Shown here: piece by piece, positions 8,117 to 59,025 of the stretch | How the letters are laid out: each line of letters begins with the position of its first letter | Position numbering within the stretch: position 1 is the first letter of the stretch | Assembly (NCBI RefSeq): GCF_002355655.1 | Contig: NZ_AP017569.1 | Coordinates: 248,001-312,000 of the forward strand | Length of the DNA stretch: 64,000 nt | Reading direction: 5' to 3' | From: Halorubrum trapanicum | GTDB lineage: Archaea > Halobacteriota > Halobacteria > Halobacteriales > Haloferacaceae | Made by a program: the position numbers and the translations under genes | The notes under the pieces: model-generated | What the model was told of the DNA's origin: nothing | Database searches by the model: none | What the model saw: the letters and a program-made list of their open reading frames with translations, nothing else

Positions 8117-8249
8117 ACCCGCACCTCATCGGGACGAGCCTAAGGTGTTGTGCCATCGGCGGTCCGCTCGGCGGCGGTCGGTATCGTTCGCGGTCGTCGT
8201 TCCCCCGCCGGCCGACAGCCTCAAGCGGTCGCCGGCCCCCGTATCGGGC

Positions 8250-8912
8250 GTGAGCAGCCGTCGCCCCGATCGCACCGGCCTCGTCGCGCCCGCGGTCGCG
8301 GTCCTCCTGATCGCGGTCCTCCTCGGCGCGCTCGTCGGCACCTGGCCGCCGTTCGTCGCGGTCGAGAGCGGCAGCATGGCGCCGGGCGTCGAGCGCGGCG
8401 ACCTCGTCGTCGTCACCGCGGCCGACCGCGCGCCGTGGGGGGACCTCTCGACCGCCGCCGACCCGGACGCGCCGACGCGCCTCGGCGGGACGGGCGACGT
8501 CGTCGTCTACACCGTTCCGGGCGCCGGTGAGAGACCGGTGTTCCATCGCCTGGCATTCCCCGTCGAGGCCGGCGAGGACTGGACGGATCGGGCGGACCCG
8601 GCGCTCCTCGCGGGCGACTGCGGCGAGCTCTCGACCTGTCCGGCGCCGTACGACGGGTACGTCACGTACGGCGACGCGAACGAGCTGTACGACCAGAGCG
8701 CCGGCATCGCGCCGGTCGTCCCCGACGAGTGGATCGTCGGCAAGGCGCTGTTCGCGGTGCCGAACCTCGGCTGGATCCGTGTGTGGGTGGACGCGGCGGC
8801 CGCGCGGTACGGCGGCGTCGCGACCGGCGTGGTCCTCGTGGGCGGCGCGGGCCTCGCGGGGGGCGTCGGCGCGCTGCTTCTGGGACGGTTTCAGCGCGGG
8901 AGGCGGCGATGA
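8250..8912 (+). CDS. Archaeal/ER-type signal peptidase I (S26B)
   Basis: Membrane-bound protease that removes Sec signal peptides outside the membrane. From the GTG start at 8250 the 220-residue protein has an N-terminal membrane helix (about residues 11-31), the nucleophile Ser in ESGSMAPG (Ser42), a His in PVFHRLAF (His99) where bacterial enzymes have Lys, and an acidic residue in YGDANELYD (Asp142). This Ser/His/Asp set is that of Sec11-type signal peptidases. A second hydrophobic helix lies near the C-terminus. The frame is open further upstream (to 8145) but that stretch is Arg/Pro-rich. The gene ends just before a structured repeat element. Confidence 0.85.
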   Translation: MSSRRPDRTGLVAPAVAVLLIAVLLGALVGTWPPFVAVESGSMAPGVERGDLVVVTAADRAPWGDLSTAADPDAPTRLGGTGDVVVYTVPGAGERPVFHRLAFPVEAGEDWTDRADPALLAGDCGELSTCPAPYDGYVTYGDANELYDQSAGIAPVVPDEWIVGKALFAVPNLGWIRVWVDAAAARYGGVATGVVLVGGAGLAGGVGALLLGRFQRGRRR

Positions 8913-8919
8913 GTCTGTC

Positions 8920-9293
8920 CGGTGGCAGCGATACGCTATTTAAATATCTATGAACGGCGGCAGCGATTACTTATAAACGCGGTACGGTCGGCGCGCGCCT
9001 CCGAGCGGCCGCCCCCGACGGCCGCGAGGAGCCCGTGCGAGGGAGTCGGTGGTCCGGAGCGAAGCGGAGGACCACCGACGAGGCTGGGGAGGCGTGAGGT
9101 GCTGTGCGGTGCGGGGGCGGGACTCAAAGGGGCAGCCGTGAGGCGGGCGCAGGCGACGCAAGCACCGCAGCGAGGAAACGTAGTGACTGAGCGAGGAGCG
9201 CAGCGAGCGTGCGCCCGCCTCACGGCTGGGGCTTTGGAGATGGTTTCGGCCAGTCCGCAGTAAACCGTTTATAAGTGAGCGGCTAGAGCTTCG
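8920..9293 (-). repeat. Dispersed three-hairpin element, copy 1 (reverse orientation)
   Basis: This fills the spacer between the convergent signal peptidase and NYN genes; I see no gene in it. Read on the minus strand it starts at a TTATAA box near 9267-9273, then CTCCAAAGCCCCAG. Hairpin I has 19-bp perfect arms (9133-9151 with 9210-9228), extended across a 3x3 internal loop by CAAAG/CTTTG (9125-9129, 9232-9236). Hairpin II has 11-bp arms (9045-9055 with 9069-9079). Hairpin III has an inner 7-bp stem (9005-9011 with 9019-9025). A TTATAA box near 8970-8976 and an ATTTAAAT palindrome near 8938-8945 close the element. The palindromic flank is shared with copy 3. Confidence 0.8.
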
Positions 9294-9345
9294 GAGGCGC
9301 TCGCCGTCGATCTGCGACGTATCGAAGCGAACTCAACTCCCAGTG

Positions 9346-9954
9346 CTACTGCGTTGAAGCCGATTCGGCCCCCGACTCGTCGCCGCCGTTTTCGATTACA
9401 TCGTCCTCGTCGCCGTCGAGCGTCACGGAGCCGTTGGCGGCGTTCCGGAGCGCGTCGGAGCGCCCGAACTCGCCGGGTGCGATGGCGAGCGTCCGGATCC
9501 CGTAGCCGTTCGCGGTCTCGACGACCGGCTTGAAGTCCGTGTCGCGGGAGGCGATCGCGAGGGTGTCCATCCGGCCTTCGGCCGCGAATCGCGCGGCGTC
9601 GACCGCGAGCTTCACGTCCACGTCGCCGCTCGTGATCACGACTTCGAAGCCGCGCGCCTCCGCGGCCTGAATCAGCCCCGGCGTCGCGTGCTCGTCGAGG
9701 TACAGGCGGGTCGTCACCAGCGGTCCCTCGGCCTCGCCGGCCCGCCGCACGTCGTCGAGGTCGACGTCGAACTCCTCGCGCAACACGTTGGGGCCGTCGA
9801 CGAACAACGCCACGCCGCCGGCGTCGACGTCCGTCACGCCGTCCGGTCCGACCCCGTCTTCCGGTCGGATCTCGTCGTCTGCGCTCGGCTCGGCGTCAGC
9901 GGTCGGCTCGCCATCCACGTTCGGCTCGCTCTCCGGCCCGTCGCCTCGGTCCAT
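9346..9954 (-). CDS. NYN (PIN-like) domain protein, predicted ribonuclease
   Basis: A 202-residue protein with a low-complexity acidic N-terminal tail (about 45 residues) followed by a NYN/PIN-like nuclease domain. Conserved acidic positions sit in ALFVDGPNVL, GDVDVKLAVDAARFA and IASRDTDFKPVVETAN, the layout of the LabA/limkain-type NYN superfamily that binds metal ions and cuts RNA. The ATG at 9952-9954 is preferred to the longer open frame, whose extra 29 residues are Arg/His-rich. RNA substrate and partner are unknown. It is divergent from the small gene at 10129, with a shared promoter region holding an inverted repeat. Confidence 0.8.
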   Translation of the reverse strand: MDRGDGPESEPNVDGEPTADAEPSADDEIRPEDGVGPDGVTDVDAGGVALFVDGPNVLREEFDVDLDDVRRAGEAEGPLVTTRLYLDEHATPGLIQAAEARGFEVVITSGDVDVKLAVDAARFAAEGRMDTLAIASRDTDFKPVVETANGYGIRTLAIAPGEFGRSDALRNAANGSVTLDGDEDDVIENGGDESGAESASTQ

Positions 9955-10034
9955 GGCCGGCCTTCGCCGTCGCCGGAGATAGGTATGGTGATTCCGCTCA
10001 ACGGCGGGTCGCGGCGCCGCCCGATCGTTTCGGA

Positions 10035-10102
10035 ACTTCAAGCCCTTATATCCGTATTACGACTTCGGTCACGACCGTAGTGAATATACGGAGATTTGAA
10101 GT
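10035..10102. promoter_or_regulatory. Divergent promoter with nested inverted repeat
   Basis: ACTTCAA (10035-10041) is mirrored by TTGAAGT (10096-10102). Inside are an imperfect CCGTAT/ATACGG pair and a central CGGTC-AC-GACCG palindrome. A TATA-like TTATATCC (about 10046-10053) points right and CCGTATATTC (10083-10092, reverse strand) points left. The symmetry suggests one regulator could control both the NYN gene and the small gene at 10129. Confidence 0.45.
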
Positions 10103-10128: not shown

Positions 10129-10383
10129 ATGTCACAATCGAACGCGTACACCGTCATTTCCGCACAGAACGATCACGAATGTACCACTGTACGTGCCCAT
10201 CCCCGCAACGAGACGTTCCACGTCGTCGAGTACGCCGACGAGGACGCCCGTGAGCGCGTTGCTGACCTGCCGGTGGGCTCGGTCGTGAAGATGGAGCTGT
10301 CGCGCGCCGGCCGCCGCAGCAACGTCTGGCGCGCCGAGTCGGTCAATACCGCACAGACCGACGGCGGGACGAGCGGGGCGTAA
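10129..10383 (+). CDS. Small haloarchaeal protein of unknown function
   Basis: An 84-residue protein starting MSQSNAYTVISAQNDHE, with beta-rich looking segments (TFHVVEYADED, GSVVKMELSRAGRRSNVWRA) and a short flexible tail. I do not recognise a family with confidence; a small beta-barrel is possible but is only a guess from the alternating hydrophobic pattern. Codon use matches the genome, and a TATA-like box lies about 80 bases upstream, implying a leader of roughly 50 bases. It ends just before repeat element copy 2. Confidence 0.7.
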   Translation: MSQSNAYTVISAQNDHECTTVRAHPRNETFHVVEYADEDARERVADLPVGSVVKMELSRAGRRSNVWRAESVNTAQTDGGTSGA

Positions 10384-10429
10384 TCCGAGTGGCTCCTAGC
10401 GCGAAATTCCGGATTTATTGATATTCTCT

Positions 10430-10710
10430 ATTATAAGCGATCGACTGCGCTACGGAGAACACCTCCAAAGCCCCAGTCGCGAGGCGGGCGCACGCTCGCT
10501 GCGCTCCTCAGTCGCTCGTTTCACTCGCTCCTTCCGGTGCTTACGTCGCCTGCGCCCGCCTCGCGACTGCCCCTTTGAGTCCCGCCCCCAACAGCACCGC
10601 AGCCTCACACCTCCCCAGCCTCGTCGGCCTCCCTCCGGTCGGCCGACTCCCTCGCGCGTGCTCCTCGCGGCCTTCGGCCGCTCGTCGGCACGCGCCACCG
10701 CACATATAAA
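10430..10710 (+). repeat. Dispersed three-hairpin element, copy 2
   Basis: This occupies the gap between two convergent genes. After a TTATAA box (10430-10436) and ACACCTCCAAAG, hairpin I has 19-bp perfect arms (10474-10492 with 10551-10569), extended across a CCC/CCC internal loop by CAAAG/CTTTG (10466-10470, 10573-10577). A G-poor linker contains CACACCTCCCC. Hairpin II pairs 10623-10629 with 10641-10647. Hairpin III pairs 10654-10661 with 10688-10695 and encloses a 6-bp stem with a TTC loop (10667-10681). The end is ATATAAA at 10704-10710. No gene is supported here; open frames inside reflect GC-rich sequence without stops. Confidence 0.8.
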
Positions 10711-10735
10711 TCCAAAAAGCAGCTGCTCGTCTCCT

Positions 10736-12529
10736 TTATAAGTCTCGCGTGAGCCGCGGGTTCGTCACCGCGCCGTCCGCGGCGGACGCGAAGTCGCGGC
10801 CGTACTTCGCGAGGATGCCGCCCTCGTAGGGCGGTTCGGGTGCGTCCCACGCCTCGCGGCGCTCGTCGAGCTCCTCCTCGGTGAGGTCCACCGTCAGGTC
10901 GCGTTCGGGGATGTCGACCGTGACGTGGTCGCCGTCCTCGATGAGCCCGATCGGGCCGCCGACGGCGGCCTCGGGCGCGACGTGGCCGATCATCGGGCCG
11001 CGGGTGGCACCCGAGAACCGGCCGTCGGTGAGCAGCGCCACGTCGTCCTCGTGGCCCGCGCCCACGACGGCGGCGGTGACGCCGAGCATCTCGCGCATCC
11101 CGGGGCCGCCGCGGGGGCCCTCGTTGCGGATGACGATCACGTCGCCGGACTCGATGCCGCCGGACTGGACGTACTCCATCGCCTCTTCCTCGTTCTCGAA
11201 CACGCGGGCGGGCCCCTCGTGGTAGAACTCGTCGTCGCCGGTCACCTTCAGCACCGAGCCGTCGGGCGCGAGGTTCCCGTCGAGGATCTTGATCGCGCCC
11301 TCCTCCTCCTTCGGCTCGTCGACCGTGTAGAGGAAGTCGGCCTCGATCTCGTCGTCGGCCGGCAGGTCGCCCCGCTCCTCCAGCTCGGCGATCTCCTCGG
11401 CGAGGGTTCGGCCCGTCACCGTCATCGCGTCGCCGTGGAGCAGGTCGGCCTCCAGCAGGCGCCGGAGGACGACAGGCACGCCGCCGACCTCGTGGAGGTC
11501 GTTCATCACGCGGCTCCCGCCGGGCTGGAGGTCCGCGATCTTCGGCGTGCGCCGCGAGATCTCGTCGAAGTCCTCGATCGAGAGGTCCACGTCCGCCTCG
11601 CCCGCGAGCGCGAGCAGGTGGAGCACCGCGTTCGTCGAGCCGCCCATCGCGGTCTGGACCGCGATCGCGTTCTCGAACGACTCTCGGGTGAGGATGTCGG
11701 AGGGCCGCCGGTCGTTCTCGATACAGTCCATCGCGAGCTCGCCGGCGCGCTCGGCGACCGCGTAGCGCTCCTCGTCCTCGGCGGGCGGCGAGGCGGAGCC
11801 GAGCGGCGCCAGCCCGAGCGCCTCCGAGAGCGACGCCATCGTGTTCGCGGTGAACATCCCGCCGCACGAGCCCGCGCCGGGGCAGGCGTTGCGCTCCAGG
11901 TCGTCGAGCTCGTCGGCGTCCATGTCGCCCTGCGCGTACGTCCCGACGCCCTCGAACACCTGGACGATCGTCACGTCGCGCCCGTCGTGTTGGCCGGGCA
12001 TGATCGACCCGCCGTAGAGGAAGACGCTGGGGAGGTCCGTCCGGATCGCGGCCATCATCATCCCGGGGAGGTTCTTGTCGCAGCCCGCGACCGTCACCAG
12101 CGCGTCCATCCGCTCGCCGAAGGAGACGAGCTCGACGGAGTCGGCGATCACCTCCCGCGAGATGAGACTCGCCTTCATCCCCTCGGTCCCCATCGAGATG
12201 GCGTCGCTAATGGTGATCGTCCCGAACTCGATCGGCATCCCCCCCGCGGCGTCGATGCCGTCGAGCGCGGCGTCCGCCACGTCGTCGAGGTGGACGTTAC
12301 ACGGCGTGATGTCCGCGGCCGGGTTCGGCACGCCGATGATCGGCGAGGAGAGGTCCTCGTCGTCGAACCCCATCGCGCGGAACATCGCGCGGTGCGGCGC
12401 CTTGTCCGGCCCCTCGGTCACCTCGCGGCTCCGCAGCTCCTCGTCTTTCCCGCCGGCGAATCGGTCCGTGTCCTCCCGGCGACGACGCCGCTCGTCGTCG
12501 TCGTCGGATCTCGGCTGCTGTTCGCTCAT
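10736..12529 (-). CDS. ilvD: Dihydroxy-acid dehydratase
   Basis: Dehydrates 2,3-dihydroxy-isovalerate and dihydroxy-methylvalerate to the 2-oxo acids in valine, leucine and isoleucine synthesis. The 597-residue protein shows the Fe-S ligand segments [14 protein letters not shown] and [18 protein letters not shown], plus [32 protein letters not shown] and [13 protein letters not shown]. The first 45 residues are an acidic, charged extension. It has no branched-chain partners next to it and stands alone between repeat copy 2 and the lower-GC islet. Confidence 0.96.
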
Positions 12530-12611: not shown

Positions 12612-13694
12612 TTACCACTCGCCTGTATAATCTATGTCGACACCGCAGGCGTCGGCGAAGTTTCGGAGATGGCGTTTCTTGTCTTTCTTGTTTAATGACG
12701 TGTAGACATAGTAGTCCTCGCCGACCTGCCGGTACGTTCGCATCTCGTCGCCGTTCGGATGGTTCGGCTCGTCGTTCAGCATCGCGATTTTCTGTCCAGG
12801 AACGTACGGAAGTGGCGCGTACGCCTCGATCAGACCGTGGTTTTCGATGAGATGATCCACGGTCCCCTCCATAACGTCTGACTGGCTCTCACCGCTGAGG
12901 AACGTTGACCCAGTATCGGTGATGAGTTCCACGACGTACGATCCAGATTCGTCTGAATGTCCGGTGGTTTTCGTGGGGTCTGACGACTGGGTATCAGTTT
13001 CACTATCCACCCGACTCTCGTTCTGATCTCGTTCCAATTCCGCGATCAGATCGTCTACGAGTGTCTTCGACAGCGACTCAGCTGGTTGGGAGACAACTTC
13101 GCCGACTCGATCGACGACCGTCTCACGGATCGAATCCGCGATATCGTCTTTCTCTTTGGACAGCGTCGAAATCGCTTGCCGTCGACGCTCCACCCGCTGA
13201 TAAATCTCTGTCGAGGCACCCGACTGAATCGAATCCTTCGAGAGCGCGGCGAGCATCCAGTCGTTCGCGGTGAGGTCGGCGAGGTCAGATTCTCCGAGGC
13301 GTTCCACGTCGGGGGTAGCGCCGTCTTTTTTAAGACGAAACACGGCGAACGTCTTTCCGTTCGTGAGTAGTCCCCAATCGACCCACTCCTGTCGCATGTA
13401 GCTCCGTAGTTGGTCGGCGTAAGCGTCGGTAATCGTTGTGTCACAGCCTTTCGCTTCGACGAATAGAGTCGGAGATCCGTCGGCGAACAGCGCGTAGTCG
13501 ACCTTCTTTTTTGAAGACCCCATCTGGACCGAGTATTCCATCTCGATTTCCGTGGAGTAGAAGTCCCATCCAAGAACATCTCTTATAAATGGATCAATCA
13601 GTCGAGATCGCGTGTTCTGCTCGTCCATTTGCGGAGACGACTCGACGAGCGACAGGGAGCGTTCGACGTAGTCCGACACCGTCTCCTCGTCCAT
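12612..13694 (-). CDS. Stand-alone HsdR_N-type (PD-(D/E)XK) nuclease-domain protein
   Basis: A 360-residue protein whose first half resembles the N-terminal nuclease domain of type I restriction subunit R: RSRLIDPFIRDVLGWDF, then KKVDYALFADGSPTLFVEAKG with the D...ExK catalytic pattern, then LRSYMRQEWVDWGLLTNGK. No helicase domain follows; the second half is charged and unannotated. An ATG at 13692-13694 is chosen because a TATA-like box sits about 27 bases upstream, although an in-frame GTG exists at 13718. Codon use is clearly more AT-rich than in the flanking genes, which suggests recent transfer. No methylase or specificity subunit is nearby, so a complete restriction system is not supported. 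Confidence 0.8.
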   Translation of the reverse strand: MDEETVSDYVERSLSLVESSPQMDEQNTRSRLIDPFIRDVLGWDFYSTEIEMEYSVQMGSSKKKVDYALFADGSPTLFVEAKGCDTTITDAYADQLRSYMRQEWVDWGLLTNGKTFAVFRLKKDGATPDVERLGESDLADLTANDWMLAALSKDSIQSGASTEIYQRVERRRQAISTLSKEKDDIADSIRETVVDRVGEVVSQPAESLSKTLVDDLIAELERDQNESRVDSETDTQSSDPTKTTGHSDESGSYVVELITDTGSTFLSGESQSDVMEGTVDHLIENHGLIEAYAPLPYVPGQKIAMLNDEPNHPNGDEMRTYRQVGEDYYVYTSLNKKDKKRHLRNFADACGVDIDYTGEW

Positions 13695-13720
13695 CTTTCG
13701 GAAATCTCTGGTGCGCACCC

Positions 13721-13728
13721 TCTTAAAA
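13721..13728 (-). promoter_or_regulatory. TATA-like box for the HsdR_N-type gene
   Basis: TTTTAAGA on the minus strand, centred about 30 bases before the ATG at 13694. It fits a leaderless transcript and argues for that start over the GTG at 13718. Confidence 0.45.
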
Positions 13729-13771
13729 GTGAAACGTTGCTAACCGTACAGGTGACAGCGTAGGAATACTG

Positions 13772-14080
13772 TCACGAAATCTCTTCCATGTCTTCCGTTT
13801 TTATCTCTTCCAAGCGTTCTTCGCCGTACTGACCGTCTGCGTTTTTGTGGTGTCGGTGGAATCGGTAGGCGGCTTGGAGTCGTTCTTCGTCATCGGTGAT
13901 TGTCCAGTACGACTCCTTGTGACGGACGAGGTCACGCTCTTTCAATCGGGAAAGGATCGCACTAACGACGTCCGTATCCAGATCGAGTCGATCGGCGATC
14001 GTCGCCGCCTTCCACGCGCGATCGTCGCTTTCGTCGAGGAACAGTACGATCCGTTCGGTATTATTCTGTACTTCGTCCAT
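13772..14080 (-). CDS. Small winged-helix protein
   Basis: A 102-residue protein starting MDEVQNNTERIVLFLDESDD. The pattern AWKAATIADRLDLDTDVVSAILSRLKERDLVRHKESYWTI splits into helix-turn-helix plus wing, as in MarR/ArsR-like DNA-binding folds, followed by a charged helical tail. It lies between the VOC gene (8-base gap upstream) and the HsdR_N-type gene, on the same strand. Its codon use is less GC-biased than the VOC gene but similar to the nuclease-domain gene, so these two may have arrived together. A role as regulator of its neighbour is an inference only. Confidence 0.7.
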   Translation of the reverse strand: MDEVQNNTERIVLFLDESDDRAWKAATIADRLDLDTDVVSAILSRLKERDLVRHKESYWTITDDEERLQAAYRFHRHHKNADGQYGEERLEEIKTEDMEEIS

Positions 14081-14088
14081 AGAGGGAT

Positions 14089-14481
14089 TCAAACCCGCGC
14101 TTTCAGTTCCACCCGGTAGCCAAACGGGTCTCGGACGTACACCGCGCCCGCCTCGCCGGTCGCGCCGAGCGGCGAGTCGAGCGTCTTCTCGACCTCGACG
14201 TCGGCCTCGGCCAGTTCGGCCTCGATCTCGTCGACCGACTCCTCGACGACGACCGCGACGTGGTCGTAGTTCGTCTTCGTCGGCCGCTCGAACTCGTCGG
14301 TCGGCCAGAGGTGGATCACCGCGGTCGCCGAGAGCCGCACGTCGAAGAACGGTTTCTCGTCGGCCGCGTACAGCGCGTCCTCGACGCCGAATCCGAGCCG
14401 CTCACCGTAGAACTCGCGGGCGGCGTCGGCGCCGTCCTCGGGGATCCGGAGGTTGACGTGGTCGATGTGTCGCGCGTTCAC
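14089..14481 (-). CDS. VOC (glyoxalase/dioxygenase superfamily) protein
   Basis: A 130-residue protein of the vicinal-oxygen-chelate fold, made of two beta-alpha-beta-beta-beta modules. HIDHVNLRIPEDGADAAREFY gives the first metal-ligand His region, AVIHLWPTD and YDHVAVVVEESVDEIEAEL the middle, and YVRDPFGYRVELKA the C-terminal Glu ligand. The substrate cannot be predicted. The GTG at 14479-14481 is chosen because a TATA-like box lies 27 bases upstream; the frame remains open beyond but looks non-coding. It is divergent from the SHOCT gene. Confidence 0.8.
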   Translation of the reverse strand: MNARHIDHVNLRIPEDGADAAREFYGERLGFGVEDALYAADEKPFFDVRLSATAVIHLWPTDEFERPTKTNYDHVAVVVEESVDEIEAELAEADVEVEKTLDSPLGATGEAGAVYVRDPFGYRVELKARV

Positions 14482-29302: not shown

Positions 29303-29920
29303 ATGGCAGTCGCTGACGAAGGTAGCCGTCACGTCGCTGAGTCGGGATTCGTCGAACGAGTTCGCCACCTCGCGGACGCCGCGAACCCGGCGTTCGCGGC
29401 CGGGAGCTTCCTCGTGCCGCTGGCGTTTTTCGCCGCGAGCCTCGCGCTCGCGAGTACCGAACTCCTCTTTTATACCCACATCGCCGCCGGCGCGGTGTGG
29501 TTCGGCTTCGCGATCATCTTCCCGGCGATCATCGGGCCGACGCTGGGCGGCCTCGACGAGGAGGCGTCGGCCGCGGTGAACAGGACGCTGATTCCGAAGG
29601 CCGTCTTCTTCCTCGTCGGCTTCTCGCTGACGACGGTGTTGTCCGGGACGGTCCTGTTGACGCCTGACCTCGGGCTCGGCTACGGCTTCGGCGGGACGTG
29701 GTCCGGGCTCGCGCTCGGTCTGGGGTGGGGGCTGTTCGCGTTCGGGCTGGCGGTCCCACACCGGCTCCAGCTCAGCGCGTACTACGAGACGCTGTCGCCG
29801 GACCCGGACGCCGCCCGGCTCGAAGCGATCGAGAAGAAGAACCTGATCGTCGGCCTGTTCGAGGGCGCCGTGATGCTCGCGCTCATCGTATTGATGACCG
29901 GGTTCCGGCTGGGAATGTAA
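29303..29920 (+). CDS. Integral membrane protein of unknown function
   Basis: A 205-residue protein with about five membrane helices. Notable segments are ELLFYTHIAAGAVWFGFAII with a membrane-embedded His, a glycine-rich helix (LGLGYGFGGTWSGLALGLG), VPHRLQLSAYYETLSP in a loop, and a final helix FEGAVMLALIVLMTGF. The His-in-helix arrangement recalls haem or quinone proteins, but I cannot assign a family. The ATG at 29303 is preferred to a GTG at 29258. It follows dehydroquinate synthase II by 109 bases on the same strand. Confidence 0.75.
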   Translation: MAVADEGSRHVAESGFVERVRHLADAANPAFAAGSFLVPLAFFAASLALASTELLFYTHIAAGAVWFGFAIIFPAIIGPTLGGLDEEASAAVNRTLIPKAVFFLVGFSLTTVLSGTVLLTPDLGLGYGFGGTWSGLALGLGWGLFAFGLAVPHRLQLSAYYETLSPDPDAARLEAIEKKNLIVGLFEGAVMLALIVLMTGFRLGM

Positions 29921-30069
29921 CGGCGTTTGAACGCATGGGTTGAATACACGGTTTCACAGCAGTACGGAATACGGATTACGCATTTCGCAGCATACGCTCT
30001 TTTGGGGTGGCTAGCATGGTTGCGATCAGTACAGCGATCAATAGCGGAGGTGACGCAGATCGGCCGAGT

Positions 30070-30515
30070 GGTTGCTTATAAGTTGCGGCGAGTCCGCGGT
30101 GGAGTTTTCCAAAGTCTCCGTCAATCGTTTATAAATAAACATCCGTTGGCCGACAGAGAGCACCGCTAAAGCCCCAGCCGCTCGCTTATAAATGGTTAGC
30201 GATGAATCGGCGGAGACTACCTCCAAAGCCCCAGCCGCGAAGCCGCCGCACACTCGCTGTGCTCCTCACTCGTTCCGGTGCTTGCGTCGTCTGCGGCGGC
30301 TTCGCGGCTGCCCGTTTGAGTCCCACCCCGCACAGCCTCACACCTCCCCAGCCTCGTCAGTCGCCGTCGCTTCGCTCGGCGACTGACTCCCTCGCGCGGG
30401 CGGTTCGCGCCGCGTTGCGGCGCTCACCGGCACGCGCCACCGCCGTGTTTATTTATAAGTAATCGTCGCCGCTCACGGGTATTTAAATATCATACCGCTG
30501 CCGCCGGTCTGACTC
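30070..30515 (+). repeat. Dispersed three-hairpin element, copy 3, with tandem TATA-like units
   Basis: The 643-base gap 29921-30563 between convergent genes holds this element; 29921-30069 shows nothing I can support. Three tandem units begin at TTATAA boxes 30076, 30129 and 30186, each ending near CCAAAG or CTAAAGCCCCAG. Hairpin I has 19-bp perfect arms (30232-30250 with 30292-30310), with many bases different from copies 1 and 2 on both arms. Hairpin II has 11-bp arms (30356-30366 with 30377-30387). Hairpin III contains a 7-bp stem with a GTT loop (30407-30423). A TTATAA box (about 30453) and an ATTTAAAT palindrome near 30482 end it. Confidence 0.8.
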
Positions 30516-30563
30516 ATCCACTCCCCTAATCGGTCGCGGAGCAGACGAATCCTCGCAGCTACG

Positions 30564-43699: not shown

Positions 43700-44245
43700 A
43701 TGACAGATAATACCTCACGCGAACGAGACGATGCGGTCGCCGACGGTGGCCGCGCAACAGATAACGCGGTCACCGATGGTGGCCGCGCAACTGACGACGC
43801 GGTCACCGATGGTGGCCGCGCAACTGACGACGCGGTCACCGATGGTGGCCGCGCAACTGACGACGCGGTCACCGACGGCGGCGTCGCCTCCTCGGGAGCC
43901 GCACAGACGCACAACAACACCGACTACCTCGGAGCGGAGGTGAACATCCTGAATCCGAGCACGCCGTACATGCGCGATCACCTGCGCATCGTGTGGTCGG
44001 GGTTCGCCGTCTGGGTCCTCGCGGTGTGGGGGCCGGTGACCCTGACGCGGATCGCCCCCGGTCCGATGACGCAGCCGATGCCAATCTTACAGTTCCCGCT
44101 TCACTACTTCCTCGTCGCGTTCGGCGCGCCGACCAGCGCGCTGATCTTAGCGTTCTGGTACTCGCGCAAGCGGGACGCGCTCGACGAGAAGTACGGTATC
44201 GAGCACGGTGACGTCGCGGCGACCGACGGAGGTGCCGACGAATGA
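43700..44245 (+). CDS. DUF4212 small subunit of a sodium/solute symporter, with N-terminal repeats
   Basis: A 181-residue protein. Residues 12-62 consist of 4.6 tandem copies of an 11-residue unit (AVTDGGRATDD). The DUF4212 domain follows, with two membrane helices (IVWSGFAVWVLAVWGPVTL and FPLHYFLVAFGAPTSALILA), then a cytoplasmic tail ending ATDGGADE. DUF4212 proteins are encoded with and accompany SSS symporters. It overlaps the symporter gene by four bases (ATGA). The leader 43621-43699 is unusually poor in G and has no TATA box, suggesting read-through from acs. Confidence 0.88.
   Translation: MTDNTSRERDDAVADGGRATDNAVTDGGRATDDAVTDGGRATDDAVTDGGRATDDAVTDGGVASSGAAQTHNNTDYLGAEVNILNPSTPYMRDHLRIVWSGFAVWVLAVWGPVTLTRIAPGPMTQPMPILQFPLHYFLVAFGAPTSALILAFWYSRKRDALDEKYGIEHGDVAATDGGADE
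43733..43885 (+). repeat. 33-bp tandem coding repeat
   Basis: Units at 43733-43765, 43766-43798, 43799-43831 and 43832-43864, plus a partial one to 43885. Units 2-4 are identical in DNA. Each encodes AVTDGGRATDD or a variant. A closely related unit lies at 45921-45953, in the tail of the symporter gene. Confidence 0.9.
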
Positions 44246-58424: not shown

Positions 58425-58452
58425 TTCGGTTCGCCGGACATATTGGGAGAAG

Positions 58453-58700
58453 TCATTTATAAAGCGATCGCGGCACTGCTATCAGTGATATATAAGCGAT
58501 CGACGACGCAACGAAGACTTCCGAATCTCCAGCCGCTCGCTTATAAATAGTTGTCAGTGACTCTGCGGTGAACACCTCCAAAGCCCCAGTCGCTCGGCCA
58601 TACGTCGATGGTTACGCCGGGACCACTCCCAAAGCCCCAGCCACTCACTTATAAACGGTTGCTGGCAGAACGGCGACAAACACCACCAAAGCCCCAGCCG
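58453..58700 (+). repeat. Tandem array of TATA-like ~51-57-bp units leading element copy 4
   Basis: TTATAA-type boxes at 58457, 58490, 58541 and 58649, plus a degenerate one near 58600, open successive units. Each unit runs about 51-57 bases to a conserved end such as CTCCAAAGCCCCAGYCGCTCG. TATA-to-CGG.GAACACC spacing is about 25-27 bases, as in a promoter and start site. The last unit leads into hairpin I of copy 4. Copy 3 has three such units and copies 1-2 one each. Confidence 0.7.
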
Positions 58701-59005
58701 CGAGGACTCGCGCGCCTCGTTGCGCGCTTCAGTCGCTCGCGTTGCTCGCTCCTTCCAGTGCTTACGTCGGCGTGCTTCGCCCTCGCGGCTGCCCCTTTGA
58801 GTCCCGCCCCGCACCGCAACCGTACCTCACACCTCCCCAGCCTCGTCGCCGGACTACGTCCGGCTGCAAGCGAGAGCTTCGCTCTCGCCCTGTCAGTCGC
58901 CTCCGCTTCGCTCCGGCGACTGACTCCCTCGCGCGTGCTGACTCGCGGCCGCCGGGGGCGGCCGCTCGCAGGCACGCGCCACCGCGTAGTTCTTTATAAG
59001 CAACC
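58649..59005 (+). repeat. Dispersed three-hairpin element, copy 4 (with two extra hairpins)
   Basis: The 601-base gap between convergent msrB and the histidine kinase gene is filled by the tandem units and this element. Hairpin I has 11-bp perfect arms (58695-58705 with 58781-58791), extended over a CCC/CCC loop by CAAAG/CTTTG (58687-58691, 58795-58799). Two additional perfect hairpins are inserted in the linker (58848-58864 and 58870-58888). Hairpin II pairs 58892-58901 with 58915-58924. Hairpin III pairs 58931-58938 with 58972-58979, around a 9-bp stem with a GGG loop (58945-58965). TTTATAAG near 58993 ends it. Confidence 0.8.
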
Positions 59006-59025
59006 GCGGTCGCGTCTGCTGATTG

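What the first reader, a model, noticed from the sequence alone, without database searches (positions are those of the whole stretch)
8913..9345. All four element copies lie between convergent genes
Seen: by my gene map the window has 13 plus-to-minus (convergent) junctions. Four hold the element; the other nine are shorter than 70 bp. No divergent or tandem spacer contains a copy. Inference: either insertion elsewhere is removed by selection because it disturbs promoters, or the element acts as a shared 3' region, for example a bidirectional terminator or transcription insulator.
Basis: seen in the sequence. Interest (0 to 1): 0.55.

Follow-up and report, generated by a model that had tools for sequence, protein, structure and literature searches.

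The report
Dispersed hairpin repeat between archaeal genes
The four copies belong to a large family of non-coding hairpin elements scattered between the genes of salt-loving archaea; in this genome they favour gene ends over gene starts, but they are not confined to gaps between convergent genes.

Summary
The window observation holds: four copies sit in the four long convergent junctions; the other nine are 9-61 bp. Genome-wide, "all convergent" fails. Of 183 copies found, all on the main contig, 69 are convergent, 95 tandem, 19 divergent. Copy-free junctions in the DNA held split 195/641/247: convergent enriched (odds ratio 2.8, P=1e-8), divergent depleted (0.39, P=8e-5), most copies not convergent. 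Orientation relative to genes is not significantly biased. In one Halorussus genome the counts are 12/17/16: per junction convergent is not enriched and divergent is, though per base of spacer convergent still leads.

The element has three hairpins with covarying arms, joined by conserved C-rich linkers. Its motif is in all 32 same-genus (Halorubrum) genomes sampled, patchy in other families. At the first site it is an insertion: 11 of 30 loci filled, all in one orientation, 2 remnants, 17 without it (called gaps 8-90 bp). Wide convergent gaps are wide because they hold a copy. Cores lack T-runs (2 of 183); mismatches in P1 and P2 show no RNA-strand signature. Best reading: an old REP/BIME-like intergenic palindrome family, kept where promoters are least disturbed. 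A 3'-end or chromosome-structuring role stays possible. My paper searches found no description.

The parts
8913..9345 (-). Element copy 1, filling the convergent spacer between ORF 8145-8912 (read by eye as a signal peptidase I; no Pfam hit) and an NYN-domain gene (9346-10041)
   Evidence: NYN domain; 11 of 30 same-genus loci, own included, carry a copy here
9125..9236 (-). Copy 1, hairpin P1 (CAAAG...CTTTG base, long stem)
   Evidence: sequence; arm pairing over 171 copies
9079..9098 (-). Copy 1, conserved linker motif C (CTCACRCCTCCCCARCCTCG)
   Evidence: same motif in other families
9045..9079 (-). Copy 1, hairpin P2
   Evidence: arm pairing over 173 copies
8990..9040 (-). Copy 1, hairpin P3, which ends the core
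   Evidence: arm pairing over 141 copies
8936..8979 (-). Copy 1, AT boxes beyond the 3' end (CTTATAAA, TATTTAAAT)
10384..10735 (+). Element copy 2, convergent spacer between a small ORF (10129-10383) and an IlvD-family dehydratase gene (10736-12529); P1 10466-10577, motif C 10604-10623, P2 10623-10647, P3 10654-10695
   Evidence: Pfam; hairpin bounds read
29921..30563 (+). Element copy 3, convergent spacer between ORF 29303-29920 and an M32 carboxypeptidase gene; P1 30224-30318, motif C 30337-30356, P2 30356-30387, P3 30394-30437
   Evidence: hairpin bounds read
58425..59025 (+). Element copy 4, convergent spacer between an MsrB (SelR domain) gene and a histidine-kinase gene; P1 58687-58799, motif C 58826-58845, P2 region 58844-58924, P3 58931-58979
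   Evidence: hairpin bounds read
30112..30238 (+). Tandem copies of the upstream AT-box unit (about 57 bp: TTATAAA ... CCAAAGCCCCAGCCGC) before copy 3
   Evidence: family D12; (number of A motifs varies between copies)
58524..58701 (+). Copies of the same upstream AT-box unit before copy 4
   Evidence: family D12

Best explanation
Each copy is one member of an old, high-copy family of non-coding, modular palindromic elements of haloarchaeal chromosomes: AT-box unit(s), hairpin P1, C-rich linker, hairpins P2 and P3, AT box. It enters intergenic DNA as a unit and is then mostly inherited at a fixed place and in a fixed orientation, while its hairpin sequences turn over and sometimes are lost. 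Shown: copy number, anatomy, arm pairing, presence/absence at two sites, shared position and orientation, biased location. Inferred: that the location bias in Halorubrum is mainly a filter on insertions (copies that would separate or disturb promoters are lost, so gaps between two 3' ends keep most), and that the paired arms matter, or are kept, at the DNA level, as for bacterial REP/BIME palindromes, rather than as a terminator or an RNA gene. The convergent setting of the four window copies is then a consequence of where a copy is tolerated, not a requirement of its function.
For: 183 copies, 69/95/19 convergent/tandem/divergent against 195/641/247 copy-free junctions; per kb of copy-free spacer about 3.5, 1.6 and 0.4. 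Tandem copies 56 sense to 39 antisense (P=0.10), convergent 41 to 28 (P=0.15). First site: 11 of 30 loci filled, all in one orientation, 2 remnants with hairpins missing, 17 without; on a tree of the neighbouring gene, presence or remnant needs 3 changes against 10 by shuffling. Of 71 copies in named loci, 27 meet a copy in the matching G000 spacer, 25 of them in the same orientation. Arm pairing beyond shuffled arms for P1 (0.80 vs 0.67), P2 (0.75 vs 0.55) and weakly P3 (0.67 vs 0.61), each above all 200 shuffles. In copies whose stems are in register, GU- and AC-type mismatches are similar in P1 (59 and 49) and both rare in P2 (2 and 6 of 1340), against GU 31, AC 0 in 21 tRNAs. Core T5 in 2 of 183. 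Linkers are alike across families while stems differ.
Against: In a Halorussus genome divergent junctions are enriched (12/17/16 with, 35/105/31 without; odds ratio 2.5, P=0.015), so promoter avoidance is not general. Spacing more regular than random (CV 0.80, P=0.001) and absence from the two smaller contigs (about 16 expected, 0 found) hint at a chromosomal role beyond tolerated insertion. The orthologous copy ranks first in only 3 of 26 comparisons, so vertical descent needs gene conversion, replacement or fast stem turnover. P3 has many more GU than AC cells (159 vs 60), which I put down to register slips but did not prove. T-runs are commoner in copy-bearing convergent spacers than at copy-free junctions, so a terminator beside the core is not excluded. 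DNA-level pairing could also be neutral quasi-palindrome correction (recalled, not tested).
Confidence: 0.6

Rival explanations
1. The element is a shared 3' region: a bidirectional terminator or mRNA-end stabiliser that serves the genes on both sides.
For: Convergent enrichment and divergent depletion in G000; very stable predicted hairpins in the six copies folded; copy-bearing convergent spacers hold T5 in 17 and 16 of 69 on the two strands, copy-free ones in 7 and 11 of 195; one hairpin terminated 59% of transcripts in Haloferax volcanii (PMC7237163, passages read); convergent spacers lead per base in Halorussus too.
Against: The main intergenic signal in Haloferax is a T stretch (same passages); the core itself has T5 in 2 and A5 in 3 of 183 copies, and no terminator-like site was found at copies 1-2. 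195 convergent junctions in the held DNA have no copy. Tandem copies show no significant strand preference and no strand-matched GU/AC shift. Halorussus junctions with a copy are not 3'-biased per junction.
Confidence: 0.15
2. Each copy is a gene for a structured non-coding RNA with its own TATA promoter; P1-P3 are RNA helices.
For: A CTTATAAA-like box upstream of P1 in 109 of 136 copies, at 40 nt from its base in 68; TTTATA is concentrated 20-40 nt before divergent gene starts (20 of 30 occurrences); covarying stems and conserved linkers; P3 has more GU than AC.
Against: GU and AC mismatches are alike in P1 and both rare in P2, and isolated P1 mismatches are AC 50 to GU 14, opposite to a + strand RNA; no Rfam match at the gathering score in the window and none of note at copy 4; I saw no such box at that place in the non-Halorubrum loci printed; exact TTTATAAG outnumbers its reverse to the right (46 to 4) and the reverse leads to the left (64 to 30), i.e. 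mainly outward.
Confidence: 0.12
3. It is a transposase-dependent non-autonomous mobile element (MITE- or PATE-like, moved by an IS200/IS605-type Y1 enzyme) that is still spreading.
For: Insertion at the first site, only 3 of 27 loci with motif C at the third, patchy spread over families and 0-107 motif hits within genus g37, inverted AT boxes at the ends, palindrome-rich PATEs known in Haloquadratum (PMC3119063, passages read).
Against: Y1_Tnp does not track the motif: present in 19 of 28 genomes with 10 or more motif hits and in 13 of 22 with none (P=0.56). Near-identical copies are rare (median best-hit identity 87% over 178 copies, one identical pair); orientations shared at 25 of 27 matched spacers; the own genome's IS605-type end hairpins look different by eye; 5 plasmid records matched (how many haloarchaeal plasmids were searched is not known).
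Confidence: 0.15
4. It is a chromosome-organising site (a supercoil or loop anchor) placed at intervals along the main chromosome.
For: All 183 copies on the main contig, more even spacing than random, shared position and orientation.
Against: 17 of 30 loci do without the first copy; the motif count varies from 16 to 195 within the genus; no orientation pattern along the chromosome (P=0.165).
Confidence: 0.1

Closest known systems
Bacterial REP sequences and BIMEs
   Same: High-copy intergenic palindromes in both orientations, here more often at gene ends; in Halorussus some inverted pairs
   Different: Larger (three hairpins plus conserved linkers), archaeal; no association with a Y1 gene found. 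Preference of REPs for gene ends and gyrase/IHF binding of BIMEs are recalled, not tested here
PATEs, SMRs and MITEs of Haloquadratum walsbyi (PMC3119063, passages read)
   Same: Non-coding, multi-copy elements of a haloarchaeon, PATEs with palindromes
   Different: Here no likeness to IS605-type ends was seen in the own genome (by eye), positions are shared between species, and copies are diverged
Intergenic repeats of HF1-group haloviruses (PMC7230728, passages read)
   Same: Intergenic AT-rich repeats with promoter elements, in haloviruses (that their hosts include Halorubrum is recalled)
   Different: No match of copy 4 in 50,697 phage records; the element core is G+C-rich
Haloferax volcanii termination sites (PMC7237163, passages read)
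   Same: Hairpins lie upstream of 503 of the sites, as the passages read
   Different: The main intergenic motif, a T stretch, is missing from nearly all element cores

Membership tests
REP/BIME | High-copy intergenic palindrome | tested here: met
   183 copies in G000; all but one (1926982) fall between called genes
REP/BIME | Accompanied by a REP-associated Y1 transposase | tested here: not met
   Y1_Tnp in 19 of 28 genomes with 10 or more motif hits and 13 of 22 with none (57 genomes searched, 7 with 1-9 hits). A special RAYT-like subgroup was not looked for
REP/BIME | Alternating or inverted pairs of units | tested here: inconclusive
   5 head-to-head pairs among 45 motif-bearing spacers in Halorussus G161; in G000 only one spacer holds two copies
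REP/BIME | Binding of gyrase or a nucleoid protein | not testable with these tools
   needs a binding experiment
PATE (IS605-derived) | Near-terminal palindromes like those of an IS605-type transposon | tested here: inconclusive
   The own genome's only Y1 element has other hairpins, compared by eye; other genomes' IS605 ends were not compared
MITE | Terminal inverted repeats matching a transposon, target duplication | tested here: inconclusive
   CTTATAAA/TTTATAAG boxes at the two ends, not compared with transposons; empty sites too diverged to read a duplication
T-run (archaeal intrinsic) terminator | Run of T in the element core | tested here: not met
   T5 in 2 and A5 in 3 of 183 cores; none at copies 1-2. 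T-runs elsewhere in the spacer are commoner than at copy-free junctions
Known Rfam RNA family | Match at the gathering score | tested here: not met
   0 in the window; best sub-threshold hit at copy 4 is 11.4 bits against a cut-off of 50

The most novel reading that the evidence does not exclude
A chromosome-specific architectural element of haloarchaea: a three-hairpin DNA module with single-strand linkers conserved across families, set at more even than random intervals on the main chromosome, kept at the same places and in the same orientation across a genus, while its stems are continually rewritten at the DNA level.
Probability: 0.15. Interest if true: 0.75.

Novelty: new variant of a known kind. 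Interest (0 to 1): 0.42.

Why it matters
It turns a local remark about four spacers into a defined repeat family whose motif is in all 32 same-genus genomes sampled and in other haloarchaeal families, with a measured location bias that differs between two genera. It warns that long convergent gaps may be long because of an insertion rather than because genes need room there. If the paired arms are under selection as DNA, it gives a tractable system for asking what dispersed palindromes do in archaeal chromosomes.

Tried and rejected
Rfam at gathering and relaxed thresholds gave nothing of note. Phage records gave no match, plasmids 5 records; one viral contig matched the short motif, without the hairpin context as far as I could see. 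A first gene-finder training converged on the antisense frame and was discarded; later versions lost single genes to a contaminated intergenic model or fixed starts and were corrected; one atypical gene in the gap 12782-14089 is still missed in the last map. A first P1 pairing test was one base out of register and was redone. A replichore-like orientation pattern was tested and not found. A strand-matched GU/AC shift in tandem copies, predicted by a 3'-UTR RNA model, was not seen; the small shift ran the other way. Y1 transposase as partner did not track the motif. Paper searches for a description of the element: 84 of the open PubMed Central library; none of the listings showed one, and I read passages only of PMC7230728, PMC12306157 (RepRanger; the term 'halo' does not occur in it), PMC2841640 (only CRISPR passages for these terms) and PMC3119063. 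Searches were for mechanisms.

Limits: the 183 copies come from two anchor motifs with up to 3 mismatches; 3 of the 103 forward B hits were beyond the listing, and 21 weak single B-type hits were dropped. Two copies rest on motif B alone and 12 on motif C with at most a weak B. Copy 1926982 lies inside a called ORF and was kept in the tandem count; two copies share one tandem spacer. The background is copy-free junctions in the DNA held, which was fetched around copies plus 12 stretches chosen as copy-free, so absolute rates are inflated though the types are compared within one set; the script's label "unbiased" is wrong. One search's length-matched test took copy spacers of all lengths; one search repeats it for 300 bp or more. 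In one search, 15 named loci of other or unplaced genera were dropped. In one search two of the 27 filled pairs (two motifs in L361) are one spacer, and held DNA favours finding copies. That the window's genus is Halorubrum, and g37 Halorussus, is inferred: from the named hits, and for g37 from equal contig lengths. The Halorussus table used 40 stretches covering the exact motif places on C1-C4 of G161 (listed contamination 6%); two exact-match places (C5, C7) were not fetched, further mismatched motifs in those stretches were counted, and the gene finder was retrained on those stretches alone.

Full report
WHAT WAS CLAIMED.

THE WINDOW. The window is bases 248001-312000 of the 2.84-Mb main contig of a 3.08-Mb genome with three contigs. 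I take the genus to be Halorubrum, because the genus-mates carry the repeat in numbers and the named hits are mostly Halorubrum; no call names the genome itself. With a gene finder trained on this genome I get 13 convergent junctions and one doubtful one; four hold the element (433, 352, 643 and 601 bp) and nine are 9-61 bp. The flanking genes include an NYN-domain gene, an IlvD-family dehydratase, an M32 carboxypeptidase, an MsrB (SelR) gene and a histidine kinase; three flanking ORFs have no Pfam hit, and calling the one at 8145-8912 a signal peptidase is by eye.

GENOME-WIDE COUNT. Two anchor motifs, searched in both directions with up to three mismatches, give 183 copies, 96 in + and 87 in -, all on the main contig. 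Motif B had 197 hits and its reversed-pattern control 13; motif C had 181 and its control 1. All 181 motif C hits are on the main contig; about 16 of 183 copies would be expected on the other two contigs by length. What kind of replicon those contigs are is not known. Classified by neighbours: 69 convergent, 95 tandem (one inside a called ORF), 19 divergent. Copy-free junctions in the DNA held: 195, 641, 247. Convergent against the rest: odds ratio 2.76, P=1.1e-8; divergent 0.39, P=7.6e-5; by distinct spacer 2.81 and 0.40. Among spacers of 300 bp or more, 66/92/19 hold a copy and 6/29/21 do not: convergent odds ratio 5.0, P=1e-4. A second sample, named Halorubrum loci found by motif, gives 25/29/7 with and 52/256/73 without: convergent P=1.9e-6, divergent P=0.21. 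So there is a real gradient from convergent to divergent, but 114 of 183 copies are not convergent. Orientation relative to genes is not significantly biased: tandem 56 sense to 39 antisense, P=0.10; convergent 41 to 28, P=0.15.

A TEST IN ANOTHER GENUS. In genome G161 of genus g37 (Halorussus by equal contig lengths of its genus-mates), 45 motif-bearing spacers in 40 fetched stretches are 12 convergent, 17 tandem and 16 divergent; copy-free 35/105/31. Convergent is not significantly enriched (P=0.42) and divergent is (odds ratio 2.5, P=0.015). Per kb of copy-free spacer convergent still leads, about 5.9 against 1.6 tandem and 2.6 divergent (from the sums), because convergent gaps are short; in G000 the same figures are about 3.5, 1.6 and 0.4. 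Divergent enrichment counts against both a purely 3' role and universal promoter avoidance. Five of the spacers hold a head-to-head pair of motifs; in the four I printed the sequence of, a palindrome lies between them.

ANATOMY. From the alignment and folds of six copies: one or more upstream units with a TTATAAA box, hairpin P1 with base CAAAG/CTTTG, a C-rich linker ending in motif C, hairpin P2, a short linker CCCTCGCGC, hairpin P3, then an AT box. In the 136 copies with both ends recognised, a CTTATAAA-like box (up to one mismatch) lies upstream in 109, at exactly 40 nt from the P1 base in 68, and a TTTATAAG-like box within 60 nt downstream in 83, median 8 nt. TTTATA is concentrated 20-40 nt before divergent gene starts here (20 of 30 occurrences), so the boxes may act as promoters; in that sense they point mainly outward. 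In other families the linkers (CTCACRCCTCCCCARCCTC, TCCCTCGCRCG, GCGCGCC) are much the same while stems and the 5' module differ (21 loci printed).

PAIRING. Arms of the same copy pair better than arms swapped between copies: P1 0.80 vs 0.67 (171 copies; 12 without anchors), P2 0.75 vs 0.55 (173), P3 0.67 vs 0.61 (141), each above all 200 shuffles. If an RNA from one strand were selected, G-U should exceed A-C. Counting only copies whose stem is in register, they are 59 and 49 in P1, 2 and 6 of 1340 cells in P2, and 159 and 60 in P3; isolated P1 mismatches are A-C 50, G-U 14, partly one inherited position. The tRNA control gives G-U 31, A-C 0 in 21 tRNAs, though that program may draw only acceptable pairs. 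The P1 and P2 pattern suggests upkeep of the inverted repeat as DNA; P3 does not fit it unless its register slips. Upkeep may be selection or neutral quasi-palindrome correction (the latter recalled, not tested).

TERMINATION. The core has T5 in 2 and A5 in 3 of 183 copies; the whole copy-bearing convergent spacers have T5 in 17 and A5 in 16 of 69, copy-free convergent junctions (with 50 bp each side) in 7 and 11 of 195; the former are much longer stretches. In Haloferax volcanii a T stretch is the main intergenic termination motif, and one hairpin tested from a coding region ended 59% of transcripts (PMC7237163, passages read).

INSERTION AND DESCENT. At the first site, 11 of the 30 loci read (38 of 39 genomes had the gene) carry the element, all in the same orientation; two (L424, L427) hold what I read as remnants with hairpins missing; 17 lack it, with called gaps of 8-90 bp (in one, L439, the next gene called is not convergent). 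I printed 12 of those 17 gaps. On a tree of the NYN protein, presence or remnant needs 3 changes (shuffled mean 10); only 3 of 27 inner branches are firmly supported. At the third site 3 of 27 loci have motif C, and one more (L468) looks like a remnant. Of 71 copies in named loci, 27 fall in a spacer whose G000 counterpart also has a copy, 5 in one without, 27 had only one flank in the held DNA or flanks not adjacent, and 12 neither; 25 of the 27 have the same orientation. The orthologous copy ranks first among G000 copies in only 3 of 26 comparisons. Positions look old, but sequence is replaced or drifts fast.

DISTRIBUTION. Motif C with up to two mismatches is found in 92 of 392 genomes of the order; all 32 same-genus genomes have 16 or more hits, and some other genera have dozens while most have none. 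Named hits include Haloparvum, Halorussus, Halosimplex and Halobellus (capped list). Some of the 92 have a single hit, which can be chance. Within g37 the count runs from 0 to 107.

REGULARITY. Distances between copies have CV 0.80, against 0.99 for random placing, P=0.001; no orientation pattern along the chromosome (P=0.165).

PARTNERS. A Y1 transposase is present in 19 of 28 genomes with 10 or more motif hits and in 13 of 22 with none (P=0.56); the one in G000 belongs to an IS605-type element whose end hairpins look different by eye.

CONCLUSION. Observation confirmed; the generalisation fails; a genuine Halorubrum bias remains. The best reading is a REP/BIME-like family held where it does least harm to promoters. 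I cannot exclude a 3'-end or chromosomal function.

Noticed in passing
window 30112-30238 and 58524-58701: Tandem AT-box units of about 57 bp upstream of the element; the number of A motifs within 400 nt varies from 0 to 6 between copies.
   Followed up: partly
L482, L483, L487, L491, L510: In Halorussus G161 two element cores lie head to head; in the four printed, a palindrome containing an AGCTAGCT-like core lies between them.
   Followed up: partly
G000:C1:2623023 and 2788494: The only identical pair of copies, 100% over 330 nt, in tandem spacers; recent copying or gene conversion.
   Followed up: no
L283, L297, L370: A second repeat (GGGACTGAAAGGGGC or a GGATAAAGGGGC form, in two of the three with GACCCCTATCCGAG), resembling the P1 module, near the element (by eye).
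   Followed up: no
window 43718-43887: A 33-bp tandem repeat beside a doubtful convergent ORF.
   Followed up: no
L472, downstream of the element core: Five tandem copies of a short unit containing TCTGTTTAGACGCGATC beside a copy.
   Followed up: no
L461: A duplicated P3 hairpin within one copy.
   Followed up: no
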